Source: Hyphomicrobium methylovorum (GTDB taxonomy: Bacteria > Pseudomonadota > Alphaproteobacteria > Rhizobiales > Hyphomicrobiaceae). Taken from it: a stretch of 64,000 nt of DNA. Within the stretch, counting starts at the first letter, position 1. Each line of letters opens with the position of its first letter. The notes beneath the pieces are model-generated. The model made no database searches and was not told where the DNA came from. It saw only the letters and a list, made by a program, of their open reading frames with translations. Where the stretch lies: assembly GCF_013626205.1 (NCBI RefSeq), contig NZ_QHJE01000001.1, forward strand, positions 2,398,501 through 2,462,500, in the 5' to 3' direction. This document shows positions 22,976-32,363 of the stretch, in pieces. Both the position numbers and the translations under genes were made by a program.

Positions 22976-24984
<2,009 letters not shown>

Positions 24985-24998
24985 GAAGTTCTTTGTCT

Positions 24999-25039
24999 GC
25001 GCCGGGCGACTCCCCTTCTGGGAGCCGGCCGCCCGGCGC
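24999..25039 (+). terminator. GC-rich hairpin just after groEL
   Basis: GCGCCGGGCG / CGCCCGGCGC is a perfect ten-pair stem with an inner ACTCCC / GGGAGC pairing. No T-run follows, so it may protect the groEL mRNA 3' end instead of ending transcription by itself. Confidence 0.5.
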
Positions 25040-25162
25040 GGGTGTTCTTGCTGGGTGCAAGAGGCAGAAGCACTTTCCGATTCCCCGCCGGGCAACCGGC
25101 CGGATGGTGCAGAAACTTCGAAGGCCAGGTCCAAGCCCAAGCTTAGACGAGCTCAGATATCG

Positions 25163-25191
25163 AAAAGCCCCGCATCGCTGCGGGGCTTTTT
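25163..25191. terminator. Bidirectional terminator between groEL and the first DUF7282-like gene
   Basis: AAAGCCCCGC / GCGGGGCTTT with a six-base loop, T-rich on both strands. The core of about 27 bases is repeated almost exactly at 25795, after the neighbouring paralogue. Confidence 0.85.
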
Positions 25192-25201
25192 GTTTGTCAT
25201 G

Positions 25202-25633
25202 TCACTGGATGATGAAGCTGTTCGCCTTGGGCAGATTTTTGCCGGCCCAATACGAGACGTCGTGCGCGCGGTTGAATTGCGTGTCGCCGTTCTGCACCTG
25301 ATAGAGGGACACCCACAGCTTGTCGCCGGGTTTCACGCCTGAGAGCGGGATGTCGACGTTGCGATGATCGCCGGCATTCAGTTCAACCGTGCCGAGCGGC
25401 TTTCCGGCGGTCTTCCCGCCCTCATCGCTTCGGAAGACGACGGCGAAGCTCTTCTCTGGAGCATACGCGTAGGTGAGCTTTACCTTTGAATCCTTGAGCT
25501 TCTGATTCATGACGATGATCGAAGCCTGCGTACCTGCAGTGTCACCGGTATTTTGAAGCGCGAGAGCCGGTTGCGCGAATGCAGCGGCCGCGAATGCAAG
25601 TGCGATCACCGAAGCGTTCATTCGTATTGTCAT
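25202..25633 (-). CDS. Small exported protein, DUF7282-like, tandem paralogue 1
   Basis: A 143-residue exported protein. A signal peptide (cleavage near 'ALALQ') leads to one beta-sandwich-like domain with the pattern 'ASIIVMNQKLKDSKVKLTY', 'SFAVVFRSD', 'LNAGDHRNVDIPL' and 'KPGDKLWVSLY', resembling DUF7282 domains (resemblance by eye only). It is clearly homologous to the next gene on the same strand. AGGAGG lies nine bases before the ATG, inside or beside a 15-base palindrome. Function unknown. Confidence 0.75.
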   Translation of the reverse strand: MTIRMNASVIALAFAAAAFAQPALALQNTGDTAGTQASIIVMNQKLKDSKVKLTYAYAPEKSFAVVFRSDEGGKTAGKPLGTVELNAGDHRNVDIPLSGVKPGDKLWVSLYQVQNGDTQFNRAHDVSYWAGKNLPKANSFIIQ

Positions 25634-25644
25634 GAGATGATCCT

Positions 25645-25659
25645 CCTATCGTCGATAGG
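25645..25659 (-). promoter_or_regulatory. Palindrome touching the ribosome binding site of paralogue 1
   Basis: CCTATCG-T-CGATAGG has seven perfect pairs. In the minus-strand mRNA the downstream arm ends in UAGG and runs directly into the AGGAGG of the gene starting at 25633, so a hairpin or a bound protein could limit translation or transcription. Confidence 0.4.
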
Positions 25660-25794
25660 GGCGTTCGGAACGAGCGTCCTGTTCTCGATTTGGGATGAGC
25701 TTGACGCGACGGCAATCGAGTCTGTTCGAGATTTAATCTCACGATGCTGCGATTGATTGGCCGGAAACCCATTCTTTTGGACGACCGAAAGTCG

Positions 25795-25821
25795 AAAAGC
25801 CCCGCATCGCTGCGGGGCTTT
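25795..25821 (-). terminator. Terminator of the second DUF7282-like gene, copy of the one at 25163
   Basis: AAAGCCCCGC-ATCGCT-GCGGGGCTTT, the same sequence and loop as at 25163-25189, ending in TTTTCG on the minus strand. It lies 11 bases after the stop of the gene ending at 25832. Confidence 0.85.
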
Positions 25822-25831
25822 CCTGTCGGTG

Positions 25832-26260
25832 TTAGCGAACGACGAAGCCGTTTGTCGAAGGCAAGTTTTCTGCCGTCCAGTATGGCGTTGCGCTCTCTCG
25901 ATCGAACGTCTTGCTGTCGTCCTTGGCGCGATAGACCGAGATCCAGAGTTCGTCTCCGGCTTTGGCATTTTCCGAGATTGGAATTTTCACGTCGCGATGA
26001 TCGCCCGCTGCGACGGCGATTGAGCCGAGCACGCTCTTGGCATTGTCGCCCTTTCCGTAGACGACGGCGAAGGCGTTTTCGGGAGCGAAGACATAGCTGA
26101 CGTTGACTTCAGGGCGATCCAACTTCTGATCCATCACGATCACAGAGGCTGGCGTCTTGGCTGCGTCGACGGCGGATTCCTGCATTGCGGATGCGGGTTG
26201 CGTGAATGACGATGCAGTCACTGCAAGCGCGAAAACGGAAACAATCAAACGGGCCGGCAT
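25832..26260 (-). CDS. Small exported protein, DUF7282-like, tandem paralogue 2
   Basis: A 142-residue exported protein with a signal peptide (cleavage near 'ASAMQ'). It aligns along its length with the gene at 25202: 'ASVIVMDQKLDRPEVNVSYVFAPENAFAVVY' against 'ASIIVMNQKLKDSKVKLTYAYAPEKSFAVVF', and both share 'AGDHR.V.IP' and 'GD.LW.S.Y'. By eye roughly 40-45 percent of positions agree, so the duplication is old although the terminators remain nearly identical. GAGGAG precedes the ATG. Function unknown. Confidence 0.75.
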   Translation of the reverse strand: MPARLIVSVFALAVTASSFTQPASAMQESAVDAAKTPASVIVMDQKLDRPEVNVSYVFAPENAFAVVYGKGDNAKSVLGSIAVAAGDHRDVKIPISENAKAGDELWISVYRAKDDSKTFDRESATPYWTAENLPSTNGFVVR

Positions 26261-26594: not shown

Positions 26595-27380
26595 ATGTCA
26601 GAAGATATTCTATCCAAGCTCAAGGCGTTACACGGGGACGTTCGCACGCGTGTTGAGGCAACATCTGACTTTAAGGCGATGAAAGCGGTCGAGCGGGCCA
26701 TCGACGAACTCGCAGCAGCGTTGGCTCCTGTGGCGGCGAACGACGACGTGACTCACGACAGTGCCGGACAAGATGAGGGGGCCGCTTCGGTTGCCGATGG
26801 CGCCGGGGAAACCGCCGATGCCGACGGGGGTACGGCGTCGGCGGTTGACGACGCTGTTGCTGCTGACGTGGTGGCAGAGGCGGAGCCAGCGGCTGAGGCC
26901 GCAGACGGCGCTGCAGATGCGGCTCCGGCTGAAGCTACGGCGGAGGTTTCAGCAGAGGCGGAAGCTGCTGCAGAGCCTGCGGCTGAGGCCAGTTCTGAGG
27001 TAGCTGGTGAAGTAGATGCTGCGGAGGCACCTGCGGCTGAAGCGCAACCGGAGGCGACGGCTGAAGCGGCACCTGCCGAAGCACCTGCAGAAGAAGCGGC
27101 TCCAGCGGCAGAAGCTGCACCGGCCGCTGAGGAGGCACCTGCGGAAGCCGCGGCAACGGCAAGTGAGCCCGCTGCTACGGAGGCTGCTGAAGAACCTCAA
27201 GCAGATGCTGCGGCCGCAGCCGAAGCACCGGCCGAGGCACCTGCGGCAGAGGCCCCGGCAGAGGTTGCTGTCGAGCCCGAAGCTCTTGCTGAAGCGCCAG
27301 CCGCTGCAGCGTTTCCTAACGGAGCAGCACATCCAACGCCTGCACCGGCTGCTGCGCCACCTGCAGGCGCTCCGGCCTAA
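26595..27380 (+). CDS. Acidic Ala/Glu/Pro-rich protein with short conserved N-terminus
   Basis: A 261-residue protein. Residues 1-50 are an ordinary helical segment (LSKLKALHGDVRTRVEATSDFKAMKAVERAIDELAAAL). The remaining 210 residues are low-complexity, made mostly of Ala, Glu, Pro and Asp in AEAPAEA-type units, with no Cys, Lys or Arg in the bulk of the tail, so it is strongly negative and disordered. It ends with a Pro/Ala/His-containing tip. No signal peptide. GAGAGGAAGAAT precedes the ATG and a strong terminator follows. Such tails occur in phasins, envelope and nucleoid proteins; none can be chosen here. Confidence 0.7.
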   Translation: MSEDILSKLKALHGDVRTRVEATSDFKAMKAVERAIDELAAALAPVAANDDVTHDSAGQDEGAASVADGAGETADADGGTASAVDDAVAADVVAEAEPAAEAADGAADAAPAEATAEVSAEAEAAAEPAAEASSEVAGEVDAAEAPAAEAQPEATAEAAPAEAPAEEAAPAAEAAPAAEEAPAEAAATASEPAATEAAEEPQADAAAAAEAPAEAPAAEAPAEVAVEPEALAEAPAAAAFPNGAAHPTPAPAAAPPAGAPA

Positions 27381-27410
27381 CGCCGAATGCTTCAGAGCAT
27401 CGCAACAAAG

Positions 27411-27440
27411 AAAGCCCCGGTTTCCGGGGCTTTCACTTTT
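27411..27440 (+). terminator. Rho-independent terminator after the Ala/Glu-rich gene
   Basis: AAAGCCCCGG-TTT-CCGGGGCTTT, ten perfect pairs and a three-base loop, followed by CACTTTT. Confidence 0.85.
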
Positions 27441-27542
27441 CTGGGAAACGTTTTCAGCGCGATCACATTTCTCTTCGCGAGACTTTGCTTTCCGCGTTGC
27501 TGGACTAAACTGTTGCCATCAAGGCGCGAACAGGAGGCGACT

Positions 27543-27725
27543 ATGAATGCGGTAGAAATTCAAGCGCACGCGCGGCAACTGTTTGAAGCCCACGGCGCGA
27601 AGGCGCTGGCTGAAGCGGCTCAAATGGTTCGCAAAGTCGAAGAGAGCGGCGATAAGCGGCTTGTTGATGACTGGCGCCGTATCCAGGTGGCGCTTACGCA
27701 ATTGCGCGGGCCCGGCGTCAGCTAA
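27543..27725 (+). CDS. 60-residue helical protein of unknown function
   Basis: A short cytoplasmic protein, almost wholly alpha-helical in character (EIQAHARQLFEAHGAKALAEAAQMVRKVEE, then DDWRRIQVALTQLRGP). A good CAGGAGG lies seven bases before the ATG. The frame extends upstream to 27387 across the terminator of the preceding gene, so the longer version is rejected. Its last eight bases overlap the 3' end of the convergent btaB. No function is known to me. Confidence 0.65.
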   Translation: MNAVEIQAHARQLFEAHGAKALAEAAQMVRKVEESGDKRLVDDWRRIQVALTQLRGPGVS

Positions 27726-28434
27726 GCCAAGCTGCTAGTCGATCCGGCAGCGGCGTCGAAAGGCCATCCGGTTGGTGCTGGCCAATTCGGACATGCGCCG
27801 CGTATCCGAGTTTGCCTTCGCTGAATCTGGTATCGCGGCCATGCCGTGACGCGATCTTCGTTGCAACGTCTGAAAGATCGAGACGCGGCGTTACGCTGAA
27901 GTGGCGCAACCACGCGCGAAGGGCGCGTCGCGGAACGGGGTGCAATCCGTTCATGCTGCCGAAATCGACGATGTGCAGTTCGCCGCGCGGGGCAAGCTGC
28001 GTAAGTGCGTTGTCGAGAACCTTCTCCCATGCGGGGATCATCGACAACGCATATGAGATTACGATGCGGTCTGCCGCATAGAGGCCGAACAGGTTGCGGG
28101 CGGAGAACGTCGCCGCGTCGGCTTCGGCGAGCTGGATGGTGTCGCGAAACGGGCTTCTCGCCACGGCGGCGCGTGCCGTCTTCAGCATTTCACCCGAAAG
28201 GTCGATGCCGAAAAAGTCCGCGTCGGGATAGAGGCGTGCGGCACGCAGCAGGTTGCGCGCCGTTCCGCAGCCGATTTCCAGAACCGAACCGCATGGTGGC
28301 GGCTCGACCGCCGCCAGCATCCTGTCGCGCCCGAAAAGGTAGGGGCGACGGGTCACGTCATAGATGAAACGCTGATGGCGGTAGATGGCATTCATCGTAT
28401 CGGCGTGGTTGGTCATCTGCCGTCCGTTGATCAA
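27718..28434 (-). CDS. btaB: Diacylglyceryl-homoserine N-methyltransferase BtaB
   Basis: A 238-residue SAM-dependent methyltransferase. Motif I is 'VLEIGCGTARN' (51-61), followed by 'DFFGIDLSGEML', 'EADAATF' and 'ISYALSMIPAW'. In the DGTS betaine-lipid pathway BtaB adds three methyl groups to diacylglycerylhomoserine. Its start overlaps the stop of btaA by four bases (ATGA-type), and this coupling to a clear BtaA supports the specific call over a generic methyltransferase. It is the last gene of the plcP-btaA-btaB unit. Confidence 0.9.
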   Translation of the reverse strand: MINGRQMTNHADTMNAIYRHQRFIYDVTRRPYLFGRDRMLAAVEPPPCGSVLEIGCGTARNLLRAARLYPDADFFGIDLSGEMLKTARAAVARSPFRDTIQLAEADAATFSARNLFGLYAADRIVISYALSMIPAWEKVLDNALTQLAPRGELHIVDFGSMNGLHPVPRRALRAWLRHFSVTPRLDLSDVATKIASRHGRDTRFSEGKLGYAAHVRIGQHQPDGLSTPLPDRLAAWLS

Positions 28435-29678
28435 GCGGTTTTGATGTACAGGTGGAAGCCGCCGTAGATGGCGGAGCGATCCTTTGCGTGAATTTCCGCG
28501 GAGCGCGCTTCGTCATAGCGCCAACGGTCGAGCAGTGCCGCAGGAACACGGCCGGGCAGAATGGTTTTTTCGCCGGCTGTGCGGAAGATGACACGGGCGC
28601 CAGGGCGTGCCGTGCGCGTGATTTCGCGCCAGAGCTTGGTGAGGGTTTTGTCGTCCATCCAATCCTGGGCGTCGAGCAGAACGTATCGGTCAAGGCTGGA
28701 TGCGGGCTCGTTCTCAAGGAAGTGAATGAAGTTGTCGTGGATCGCGCTGACGCATCCGGTGCGCGTCTTGATCGCGAGGAAGTTTGCTTTTTCGAGGTAG
28801 GGCGGGCACGGGCCTTGGCCTTCGGCTGCGTAGCGGCGGCCGAATGCCTGCCAGGCGAAGTAGTTGTCCTTCAGATCGAATGCGGTTGCGAGCCGCTCCG
28901 TGCGCGCTTTCAGAACGGAGGCCATCGGCTGAGCGCCGTGTTCGGACAGGGCCTCATATTGCGCCGGAGGAATTCCGAGCCCGAACAGCGATGCTCGATT
29001 TGCCGTCAGCCATCGCAGGAGCGGGCGCTCGAAGGCTGGCGCGAACTCGCGATCGAAGATCTCGCGCTGCTCGCTCAGCGATTTTGCTTCCAGCAAGCGC
29101 TTTGGGTTTACGCCCAGCACGCGTGCAAGGATGTGTCCTGTCGAGATGAAGCGGCCGAGAAGTCCGTGGCGATAGAAATTGCGAGCGAAGCGCGAAATCC
29201 GTTGGCGGCCGGTTGCGTCGCGGCCTTCCCAATAAGCGCGGCTCGACGCATCGAGGTGAGGGGCGATGAGATCGCGATAGAGGTAGACGTTGCGGCGATC
29301 GTCAGCAGCGCCGAAGAAGCGGAAGAACGCCAAGTGGGTTGGAAGGTGGCGTGCCGCTGCCAGCTTCAAGTTTAGAAGGGCAATGTGAGTCCGGTTGAGA
29401 TCAACCGCGTAGATGCGCGCTGGATTTGCCGTGAGGTAGCTCATCACGTTGCAGCCGCCGGAGGCGATCGTGACGATGCGGCTTTGCGAGTCGAGTTCCA
29501 GCGCTTCCATGTCGGCGCGGGGATCTTCCCAGATTTGCGGATAGACAAGCGAGCGGAACGCGAACGTGAAAACGCGTTCGAGAACACCGGTGCTGCTGAG
29601 CGCCCTGTTGCGATGTACGGCCTCGCTCAGGAGGTCCGCACTGTCGGGTGTCATCAGTCGTGCCGTGGCATCCATCAA
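28431..29678 (-). CDS. btaA: S-adenosylmethionine:diacylglycerol 3-amino-3-carboxypropyltransferase BtaA
   Basis: A 415-residue enzyme that transfers the aminocarboxypropyl group of SAM to diacylglycerol, making diacylglycerylhomoserine. Hallmarks: 'FAFRSLVYPQIWEDP' near residue 45, 'IASGGCNVMSYL' (SAM site), 'AVDLNRTHIALLNLKLAA', 'VLLDAQDWM' and 'ARVIFRTAGE' near the end. Length is as in known BtaA proteins. It lies 78 bases after plcP and overlaps btaB. In Sinorhizobium and Rhodobacter the pathway is induced by phosphate starvation. Confidence 0.95.
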   Translation of the reverse strand: MMDATARLMTPDSADLLSEAVHRNRALSSTGVLERVFTFAFRSLVYPQIWEDPRADMEALELDSQSRIVTIASGGCNVMSYLTANPARIYAVDLNRTHIALLNLKLAAARHLPTHLAFFRFFGAADDRRNVYLYRDLIAPHLDASSRAYWEGRDATGRQRISRFARNFYRHGLLGRFISTGHILARVLGVNPKRLLEAKSLSEQREIFDREFAPAFERPLLRWLTANRASLFGLGIPPAQYEALSEHGAQPMASVLKARTERLATAFDLKDNYFAWQAFGRRYAAEGQGPCPPYLEKANFLAIKTRTGCVSAIHDNFIHFLENEPASSLDRYVLLDAQDWMDDKTLTKLWREITRTARPGARVIFRTAGEKTILPGRVPAALLDRWRYDEARSAEIHAKDRSAIYGGFHLYIKTA

Positions 29679-29756
29679 GGGATCTCCAAACGAACTCTGG
29701 TTTCGGGTTGCTGTGTGGTTGAATGAGATTTCGTGGTGTGTTGGCGTAAGTGGCTT

Positions 29757-30569
29757 TCAAGCCGCTTCAACCAGGCCTCCGCGCCGGGTTCCGCGCTGGG
29801 CCCGCTTCTGCATGACGCTTTTCCAGTCGATGATTTCGAATGTGCCGTCGAAGCGCTCGGCGATCGCGGTGCAGCTTTCGACCCAGTCGCCGCAATTCAG
29901 GTAATGGATACCGGCGATCATCCGATCGTTGGCGTGGTGGATGTGACCGCAGATGAGACCGGAGGCGCCGCGCCTGCGCGCTTCGCTTGCGAGCGCTTCT
30001 TCAAATTCGCCGATGTAGCTGACAGCGGTTTTAACTTTCCGCTTCAAGAATGCCGACAATGACCAGTGGCCCAGCCCGAATATGCGGCGTGCGAAATTCA
30101 GCGGAACGTTGAGCGCGAGCGCCGCGTCGTAGGAGCGGTCTCCCAGGAAGGCGAGCCAGCGTGCGTAACGAACGACGACGTCGAATTCATCGCCATGCAG
30201 AACGAGGTATTTTTTGCCGTCCGCGCTTTCGTGGATCGCGTCGCGATGCAATTCAACGCCGCCGAAATGCATGCCGGTATATTCGCGCAATCCGTCGTCG
30301 TGATTGCCGGGAATGAAGATGATGCGCGTGCCTTTGCGGGCTTTGCGCAGAAGTTTCTGAAGAACGTCGTTGTGGCTCTGCGGCCAATGCGGGCCGCGGC
30401 GCACCTTCCAGAAATCGACGATGTCGCCGACGAGATAGAGAACCTCGCATTCGACGTCTTTCAGAAAGTCGAGCAGGGCTGCAGTTTGGGAACTGCGCAT
30501 GCCCAAATGGACATCGGAAATGAATACGGCGCGATAATTGAACTCGCCCGTGGCGGTGGATGCGCTCAC
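29757..30569 (-). CDS. plcP: PlcP-type phospholipase C (metallophosphoesterase) of phosphate-starvation lipid remodelling
   Basis: A 270-residue calcineurin-like phosphoesterase with all metal motifs: SDVHLG (Asp19, His21), GDIVD (Asp49), GNHDD (Asn89-Asp91), HGDEFD (125-130) and GHIHH (208-212). By sequence alone it would be called an LpxH-like UDP-diacylglucosamine diphosphatase. Its place directly before btaA-btaB and a PHO box upstream point instead to PlcP, which in Sinorhizobium meliloti cuts phosphatidylcholine to diacylglycerol, the substrate of BtaA. Start: ATG at 30569. The family is certain; the PlcP role is strong inference from context. Confidence 0.88.
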   Translation of the reverse strand: MSASTATGEFNYRAVFISDVHLGMRSSQTAALLDFLKDVECEVLYLVGDIVDFWKVRRGPHWPQSHNDVLQKLLRKARKGTRIIFIPGNHDDGLREYTGMHFGGVELHRDAIHESADGKKYLVLHGDEFDVVVRYARWLAFLGDRSYDAALALNVPLNFARRIFGLGHWSLSAFLKRKVKTAVSYIGEFEEALASEARRRGASGLICGHIHHANDRMIAGIHYLNCGDWVESCTAIAERFDGTFEIIDWKSVMQKRAQRGTRRGGLVEAA

Positions 30570-30710
30570 CGTCGCCCCCTCATCGCAATGCTAGCAGCTC
30601 GTTTTTGTCGAGGCGGCCGCCAGCGCGGTATCGTGCTCAGTTGAGGAAAGCGGTGCGCGTTTTCTGGACGCGCTCTAAGCTCTCCATGGCACGCGATGAG
30701 CCGGATTCAT

Positions 30711-30728
30711 GTAACAGGCGTATGACAG
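30711..30728 (-). promoter_or_regulatory. PHO box upstream of plcP-btaA-btaB
   Basis: Read on the minus strand, CTGTCAT-ACGC-CTGTTAC is two seven-base repeats spaced by four, against the PhoB consensus CTGTCAT-N4-CTGTCAT. Only the last two bases of the second repeat differ. It lies about 140 bases upstream of the plcP ATG and points toward it. Confidence 0.75.
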
Positions 30729-30783
30729 AATCAGTCCGCGCGACGACTCGGCGCGAATTCAGGGTTCGATACTGGTGACCGGA

Positions 30784-31017
30784 TCAGTATTCGATGCGCT
30801 GGAAGATCCGTTCCCAGACGAACAGCAACACCGTGTCGATGGCACCGACGAGTAAGAAGGCCATTGCGATCGGAACGGTGGAGGATTCCGGAAGCCCTAA
30901 GTCTGAGCCGCGCGTCGATACCGCGAGAGCGGCTGCGAGGCTGATGAGGGCGAGGATGGCGAAGAAGACTTGGACGAACTTGAGCGAGCGCTCACGCTCA
31001 CGGCGGATGGTGCTCAT
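30784..31017 (-). CDS. 77-residue membrane protein of unknown function
   Basis: A small protein with a basic N-terminus (STIRRERERSLK) and two membrane helices (VQVFFAILALISLAAALAV and VPIAMAFLLVGAIDTVLLFVW) joined by a polar loop, ending in 'ERIFQRIEY'. Both ends should face the cytoplasm by the positive-inside rule. The family is not known to me. A CtrA-type motif lies about 80 bases upstream. It follows the cca operon on the same strand but with a 90-base gap, so it may have its own promoter. Confidence 0.65.
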   Translation of the reverse strand: MSTIRRERERSLKFVQVFFAILALISLAAALAVSTRGSDLGLPESSTVPIAMAFLLVGAIDTVLLFVWERIFQRIEY

Positions 31018-31095
31018 CGGGTGTCCCTGACGCGTTACAAATAGAAAACCCCGGAGAGCATCTTAACTTTGCTCGGGCCGAACACAAAGACATAT

Positions 31096-31111
31096 TTAAC
31101 GGTTCGTTAAC
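31096..31111. promoter_or_regulatory. CtrA-type binding motif TTAA-N7-TTAAC
   Basis: TTAA-CGGTTCG-TTAAC fits the CtrA consensus exactly. It lies 80 bases before the 77-residue membrane protein gene and overlaps the stop codon of cca. The core TTAACG-GTT-CGTTAA is also an inverted repeat, so a dimeric repressor is an alternative. Confidence 0.45.
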
Positions 31112-32363
31112 CAAGTTGCTCCGCAGTCAACGCAGCGAGCTTTGCACGCAACGTCGTTTTGCATTGCGGAAAATCGGCGGCCATCCACCATCGTTCGAAG
31201 GCATCGAGGATGCGTCCGACGGCGGGGCCGGGTGCTGTGCCGAGGGCGAGAACGTCGGCGCCGGAGAACGGCATCTGTGGTGCCTTCCAGCGGTCCGCCA
31301 GAAGGGCGCGGCGTCGCCATGCGTTATCCGTCACCGAGGCTTCGGAACGCGCCCAGGCGGCAATTACGGCGCGGGAAAAGGCTTCCGGTCCAAGCTTGTA
31401 CAGTTGGGCGCGTGCGGTGGCGTCTGGCGCTGCCGGATCGATTTCCGGCACGGCGATTGCGATGACTTCCAGGGCGTCGGTTTCGGCGTTCGAAAGGCGC
31501 AAGTCACGGCCAAGGATTGCGGCATCCTCGGGGGTGGAAACAGCAAGTGCGGCTAGGCGAGTGATCGGATCGGCGCGGCGGCCAAGGGCCGTTTCGATGC
31601 TGGCTAGTCGGGTCAGCCGTTGCGGAGCGATGTTGGTTCGCACAAGGAGCGGGAGGATGCCCGCCTCGTTCATTGCGGCGACGACTTCCGGAGCGTGCCG
31701 CGCCGTGAGCAATTTCATCAATTCACTGCGGATGCGCTCAGCGGCGAGTCCGGAAAGGCCGTCCTTCAAAGCCGTAACAGCGGCAAGTCCTGTGGGATCG
31801 AGCTGTCCCTCGCTGTAGCCAGCGCTGAAGCGAAAGAAGCGGAGGATGCGGAGATAATCTTCGCGAATGCGCGTTTTGGCGTCGCCAATGAAACGCACGC
31901 GGCGGTGACGAATGTCGTCGACGCCGCCGACGGTGTCGAATAGCGTGCCGTTCTCGGAGCAGGAGAGCGCGTTGATCGTGAAATCGCGCCGGTCTGCGTC
32001 TTCGCTCCACGATGTCGTGAAGGCGACGACGGCGTGGCGGCCGTCCGTTTCAACGTCCCGGCGCAGTGTCGTGACTTCAAACGTGTGGCCATTCGAGACG
32101 AGCGTGACGGTGCCGTGCGCGAGGCCGGTTGGATGCGTGCCCAGTCCGGCCGCTCGTGCAAGGCGGATCACTTCGTCGGGTATGGCGGTTGTTGCCAGGT
32201 CGACCTCGCGGACAGGCCGACCGTAGAGCGCGTCGCGTACGGCACCGCCGATGACGCGCGTTTCGGCCTTTCCAGCCGTAAGCGCGGCGAATACACGGCG
32301 AAGCGGTTCCGCGTTCAGCCAGTCTCCGCGGATGCGGATATGTTGCGCGTGCGGTTCCGTCAT
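31107..32363 (-). CDS. cca: CCA tRNA nucleotidyltransferase / poly(A) polymerase family protein
   Basis: A 418-residue enzyme that adds or repairs the 3' CCA of tRNAs. The nucleotidyltransferase core shows 'RVIGGAVRDALYGRPVREVDLATTA' (Gly loop and the catalytic D-x-D region), 'HGTVTL', 'RRDFTINAL' and the motif 'IREDYLRILRFFRF'. The C-terminal helical part carries the tRNA-binding neck and body. The ATG at 32363 lies after the stop of the preceding DUF6111 gene; the longer frame overlaps that gene. It is the last gene of a three-gene operon with the Nudix hydrolase and DUF6111. Confidence 0.95.
   Translation of the reverse strand: MTEPHAQHIRIRGDWLNAEPLRRVFAALTAGKAETRVIGGAVRDALYGRPVREVDLATTAIPDEVIRLARAAGLGTHPTGLAHGTVTLVSNGHTFEVTTLRRDVETDGRHAVVAFTTSWSEDADRRDFTINALSCSENGTLFDTVGGVDDIRHRRVRFIGDAKTRIREDYLRILRFFRFSAGYSEGQLDPTGLAAVTALKDGLSGLAAERIRSELMKLLTARHAPEVVAAMNEAGILPLLVRTNIAPQRLTRLASIETALGRRADPITRLAALAVSTPEDAAILGRDLRLSNAETDALEVIAIAVPEIDPAAPDATARAQLYKLGPEAFSRAVIAAWARSEASVTDNAWRRRALLADRWKAPQMPFSGADVLALGTAPGPAVGRILDAFERWWMAADFPQCKTTLRAKLAALTAEQLG

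What the first reader, a model, noticed from the sequence alone, without database searches (positions are those of the whole stretch)
27718..30728. plcP-btaA-btaB behind a PHO box: phosphate-starvation lipid remodelling in one operon
Three adjacent minus-strand genes form a complete route: a metallophosphoesterase with PlcP context releases diacylglycerol from phospholipid, BtaA adds the homoserine part, and BtaB methylates it to the betaine lipid DGTS. CTGTCAT-N4-CTGTTAC lies 140 bases upstream. In Sinorhizobium meliloti plcP and btaAB are separate PhoB targets; here they appear as one unit. The metallophosphoesterase would be called LpxH-like without this context.
Basis: partly seen in the sequence, partly recalled or inferred. 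Interest (0 to 1): 0.6.

Follow-up and report, generated by a model that had tools for sequence, protein, structure and literature searches.

The report
Phosphate-saving membrane lipid operon, Hyphomicrobium
This Hyphomicrobium genome carries, in one probable operon behind a phosphate-starvation switch site, the three enzymes that swap phospholipids for a phosphorus-free betaine lipid; the gene arrangement is already published in marine bacteria, so this is a well-supported but ordinary find.

Summary
Three minus-strand genes (29757-30569, 28431-29678, 27718-28434) encode a PlcP-type metallophosphoesterase, BtaA and BtaB, and a PHO-box-like site (30711-30728) lies 141 bases upstream of the first. 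The window is from a Hyphomicrobium-type genome. The first protein is PlcP, not LpxH: it is 56% identical to the S. meliloti PlcP ortholog, lies in a fully supported clade apart from true LpxH, has the GNHD motif where LpxH has GNRD, and the genome has its own LpxI. The operon is present in all 17 same-genus BtaA loci examined. The box is found at the matching upstream position in nearly all orthologs, within a conserved promoter block. PhoB and a pst-phoU cluster are in the genome. The likely working is the known one: low phosphate activates PhoB, PlcP releases diacylglycerol from phospholipid, and BtaA and BtaB convert it to DGTS. The implied novelty does not hold: plcP followed by btaA and btaB, with Pho boxes, is the 'type 1' arrangement of Sebastian et al. 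(PMC4796936), with knock-out and lipid data in Phaeobacter. This is a new member of a known kind; interest is low. Expression, PhoB binding and DGTS production here remain inferred.

The parts
30711..30728 (-). PHO-box-like PhoB site CTGTCAT-ACGC-CTGTTAC (12 of 14 fixed positions of the published consensus CTGTCATNNNNCTGTCAT)
   Evidence: consensus quoted in PMC8528852
30697..30726 (-). promoter block conserved across Hyphomicrobium orthologs: GTCAYACGCSTGTWACATGAATCCSGTCCTA in most (GTCATACGCCTGTTACATGAATCCGGCTCA here); includes most of the PHO box and a presumed -10 region
   Evidence: alignment of plcP upstream regions; -10 assignment is inference
29757..30569 (-). plcP: calcineurin-like phosphoesterase, predicted intracellular phospholipase C (270 aa)
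   Evidence: Pfam PF00149; far below LpxH cut-offs; 56% identity to S. meliloti PlcP ortholog; tree and motif
28431..29678 (-). btaA: predicted S-adenosylmethionine:diacylglycerol 3-amino-3-carboxypropyl transferase (ATG at 29675 likely start)
   Evidence: PF11899 387.6 bits; 54.7% identity to the S. meliloti homolog
27718..28434 (-). btaB: predicted diacylglycerylhomoserine N-methyltransferase (ATG at 28416 likely start)
   Evidence: class I methyltransferase Pfam hits; 51% identity to the methyltransferase next to BtaA in S. meliloti

Best explanation
A PhoB-controlled operon plcP-btaA-btaB for lipid remodelling under phosphate starvation. When phosphate is low, PhoR activates PhoB, which binds the PHO box at 30711-30728 and switches on the three genes. 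PlcP cleaves phospholipids to diacylglycerol and a phospho-alcohol. BtaA adds the homoserine part to diacylglycerol, and BtaB methylates it three times to DGTS, a phosphorus-free zwitterionic lipid that replaces phosphatidylcholine and phosphatidylethanolamine while phosphate is recovered. Shown here: the genes, their family identities, operon layout, conservation, the conserved PHO-box-like promoter element, and presence of PhoB and pst genes. Inferred from work in S. meliloti and Phaeobacter: the enzyme activities, the PhoB response and the lipid change.
For: Gene calls and families. PlcP 56% and BtaB 51% identical to S. meliloti homologs, BtaA 54.7%. Tree: LpxH, including LpxH from three genomes that also hold a PlcP relative, is a separate 100/100 clade; window protein and S. 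meliloti PlcP lie on the other side. GNHD in every PlcP-side row, GNRD in all four LpxH rows. LpxI in the own genome next to ORFs that read as LpxA and LpxB. plcP directly upstream of btaA-btaB in 17 of 17 same-genus BtaA loci fetched. PHO box conserved at the matching upstream place and far above background. PhoB over its curated cut-off, PstS, and a histidine kinase, pst, phoU and phoB in one cluster. In Phaeobacter sp. MED193 the same gene order exists and a plcP deletion abolishes DGTS (PMC4796936).
Against: No transcript, PhoB-binding or lipid data for this organism. Many genus relatives have CCG or TCG instead of CTG at the start of the first half-site. The site upstream of this genome's own pstS is weak (11.9 bits), so the motif is not independently validated within this genome. 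The window's plcP leader is about 75 bases longer than in relatives.
Confidence: 0.93

Rival explanations
1. The metallophosphoesterase is the lipid A enzyme LpxH (UDP-2,3-diacylglucosamine diphosphatase), next to btaAB by accident, as automatic annotation would name it.
For: Best NCBIfam hits are LpxH models, PDB hits are LpxH, and PlcP relatives in public plasmid records are named UDP-2,3-diacylglucosamine diphosphatase.
Against: Scores 47.5-52.5 bits against cut-offs of 190 and 134; separate clade; GNHD not GNRD; LpxI present in the same genome; genomes with a PlcP relative also hold a separate true LpxH over the cut-off.
Confidence: 0.02
2. The three genes make DGTS but the upstream site is not a PhoB site; expression is constitutive or under another regulator.
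For: Half-site variation in relatives, weak site at this genome's pstS, no laboratory data.
Against: Strong conservation at a matching place in orthologs, PhoB present, match to the published consensus, Pho-box control of the same genes in S. meliloti and marine bacteria; in L022 plcP with a box is followed by phosphonate uptake genes.
Confidence: 0.05

Closest known systems
Type 1 plcP-btaA-btaB cluster of marine heterotrophs (Phaeobacter sp. MED193; Sebastian et al., PMC4796936)
   Same: Same three genes with btaA and btaB downstream of plcP; Pho boxes in plcP clusters; plcP needed for DGTS in low phosphate
   Different: Different organism (Hyphomicrobium, not a marine roseobacter); no lipid or mutant data here
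S. meliloti plcP (SMc00171) and btaAB
   Same: Homologous enzymes at 51-56% identity; PhoB regulation reported there
   Different: plcP and btaAB are about 390 kb apart in the S. meliloti record examined
P. aeruginosa plcP-agt1 (PA3219-PA3218)
   Same: plcP first in an operon behind a Pho box, with a diacylglycerol-using enzyme next
   Different: The second gene is a glycosyltransferase and the product is a glycolipid, not DGTS

Membership tests
PlcP phospholipase C | Groups with the S. meliloti PlcP ortholog and not with LpxH in a tree | tested here: met
   56% identity
PlcP phospholipase C | Cleaves phosphatidylcholine/phosphatidylethanolamine to diacylglycerol | not testable with these tools
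   needs enzyme assay
LpxH | Reaches curated LpxH score cut-off and has the GNRD motif shared by the LpxH rows | tested here: not met
   47.5 bits against 190.35; GNHD
BtaA | DUF3419/BtaA domain over full length, close to the S. meliloti homolog | tested here: met
   PF11899, 387.6 bits; 54.7% over 95% of the protein
BtaB | Class I methyltransferase homologous to the gene next to btaA in S. meliloti, adjacent to btaA | tested here: met
Type 1 plcP-btaA-btaB cluster | btaA and btaB immediately downstream of plcP, same strand | tested here: met
PhoB (Pho) regulon member | PHO box CTGTCATN4CTGTCAT-like upstream, conserved in orthologs | tested here: met
   12 of 14 positions here
PhoB (Pho) regulon member | Induced in low phosphate, dependent on phoB | not testable with these tools
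   needs expression data

The most novel reading that the evidence does not exclude
The conserved block that runs on past the PHO box (ATGAATCC[GC]GTCCTA) and the relaxed first half-site (CCG/TCG) mark a genus-specific PhoB promoter type or a second regulator, so that Hyphomicrobium runs the operon under an additional signal besides phosphate.
Probability: 0.07. Interest if true: 0.25.

Novelty: new member of a known kind. Interest (0 to 1): 0.15.

Why it matters
It predicts that Hyphomicrobium, widespread methylotrophs, can replace phospholipids by DGTS when phosphate is scarce, extending a strategy described in marine bacteria and rhizobia. It also shows again that LpxH-like names in automatic annotation often hide PlcP. 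It does not open a new question.

Tried and rejected
LpxH identity: rejected by score, motif, tree and presence of LpxI. Chance origin of the PHO box: rejected. A sigma-70 consensus promoter was looked for in 27300-31150; none found, which is expected for a PhoB-type promoter and says little. Rfam: no RNA families in the window. Validation of the PHO box through pstS promoters gave only moderate sites in this genome and mixed ones in relatives. Papers on betaine lipids that mention Hyphomicrobium and phosphorus: none in the library. The primary S. meliloti papers (PMC1464414, PMC2806695) are not held. A search with a wrong frame failed and was repeated.

Full report
Observation. The three minus-strand ORFs are present at the stated places. 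A perfect CTGTCAT-N4-CTGTTAC lies at 30711-30728, 141 bases upstream of the GTG of the first gene. Likely starts of btaA and btaB are ATG 29675 and ATG 28416; the gaps are then about 80 and 15 bases, with no PHO-like site of 12 or more matches inside the operon.

Where it is. The closest PlcP relatives (75-83% identity) are from Hyphomicrobium, including H. facile DSM 1565, and from MAGs of that genus or placed with it. The genome is 3.45 Mb and rated 100% complete. It holds a PhoB over the curated cut-off and PstS. These lie in a cluster of a histidine kinase (presumed PhoR), pst, phoU and phoB (some assignments read from the sequences).

PlcP or LpxH. NCBIfam LpxH models hit weakly, 47.5 and 52.5 bits against cut-offs of 190 and 134. 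The protein is 56% identical over nearly its full length to the S. meliloti gene next to a LuxR-type regulator and an acyl-homoserine-lactone synthase. From my own knowledge that is the locus of SMc00171, the plcP reported from S. meliloti; PMC3596328 names SMc00171 a phospholipase C. In a 44-row tree the four LpxH sequences form a 100/100 clade apart from all PlcP-type rows. Three of those LpxH come from genomes that also hold a PlcP relative. Some deep rows on the PlcP side have long branches and uncertain places, but the window protein and the S. meliloti protein are not among them. All PlcP-side rows have GNHD; all LpxH rows have GNRD. The genome has LpxI, next to ORFs whose sequences read as LpxA and LpxB (read by eye).

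BtaA and BtaB. BtaA matches PF11899 over its length at 387.6 bits and the S. meliloti homolog at 54.7%. BtaB is 51% identical to the methyltransferase directly downstream of that homolog.

Conservation. In all 17 same-genus BtaA loci fetched (window genome included), plcP lies directly upstream of btaA and btaB on the same strand. The same holds in 3 of 8 loci from other genera of the family and in none of 5 from other families of the order, counting only the roughly 1.5 kb of flank held. Of 28 named relatives found by PlcP, 22 have btaA-btaB next to it. In L022 (Hyphomicrobium sp. CS1BSMeth3) plcP is instead followed by a phosphonate-type ABC transporter, itself a typical phosphate-starvation neighbour.

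PHO box. The upstream alignment shows a conserved block GTCAYACGCSTGTWACATGAATCCSGTCCTA in Hyphomicrobium; more distant relatives keep a box close to CTGTCAYN4CTGNWAY, mostly at -58 to -103. A matrix built from 11 of those more distant boxes scores the window site 21.0 of 23.7; next best in the window is 13.0, shuffled maximum 18.5. The published consensus is CTGTCATNNNNCTGTCAT (PMC8528852), matched here at 12 of 14 fixed positions. Caveats: the pattern used was relaxed with the window site in view; two genus members (L013, L054) gave their best pattern hit elsewhere, though L013 keeps the block in the alignment; and the site near this genome's pstS is weak.

Known or new. Sebastian et al. (PMC4796936) describe plcP with btaA and btaB downstream as type 1 of six plcP contexts, with predicted Pho boxes in plcP clusters. 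They show that deletion of plcP in Phaeobacter abolishes DGTS in low phosphate. PhoB control of btaAB and plcP in S. meliloti is reviewed in PMC3972451. The present operon is a new member of this kind in Hyphomicrobium; no paper on betaine lipids in that genus was found in the library, which does not prove there is none.

Mechanism and what is inferred. Established here: gene identities by homology, operon layout, conservation, a conserved PHO-box-like promoter element, and the presence of the regulator. Inferred: PhoB binding, induction, co-transcription, enzyme activities and DGTS production.

Noticed in passing
25202-25633 and 25832-26260, minus strand: Two adjacent related secreted-looking proteins of family DUF7282, apparently a tandem duplication, beside groEL.
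   Followed up: no
24980-25330, 25640-25830, 27390-27460: Similar short sequences recur between genes: ORF translations with RKAPHRCGAF, RKAPQRCGAF and KKAPVSGAF, one with a strong hairpin at 27410-27434; possibly a dispersed intergenic repeat or terminator family.
   Followed up: no
26595-27380, plus strand: Protein of 261 aa made largely of Ala, Glu and Pro repeats, with no Pfam or NCBIfam hit.
   Followed up: no
30570-30710: The plcP leader is about 75 bases longer here than in other Hyphomicrobium, by one extra stretch between the PHO box and the start codon.
   Followed up: partly
L022 4959-9684: In Hyphomicrobium sp. CS1BSMeth3 plcP with a PHO box is followed by a phosphonate-type ABC transporter rather than btaAB.
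   Followed up: partly
L011 7-642, minus strand: A second, distant calcineurin-like phosphoesterase (31% identity to PlcP, GNHD) about 4.4 kb from plcP.
   Followed up: no
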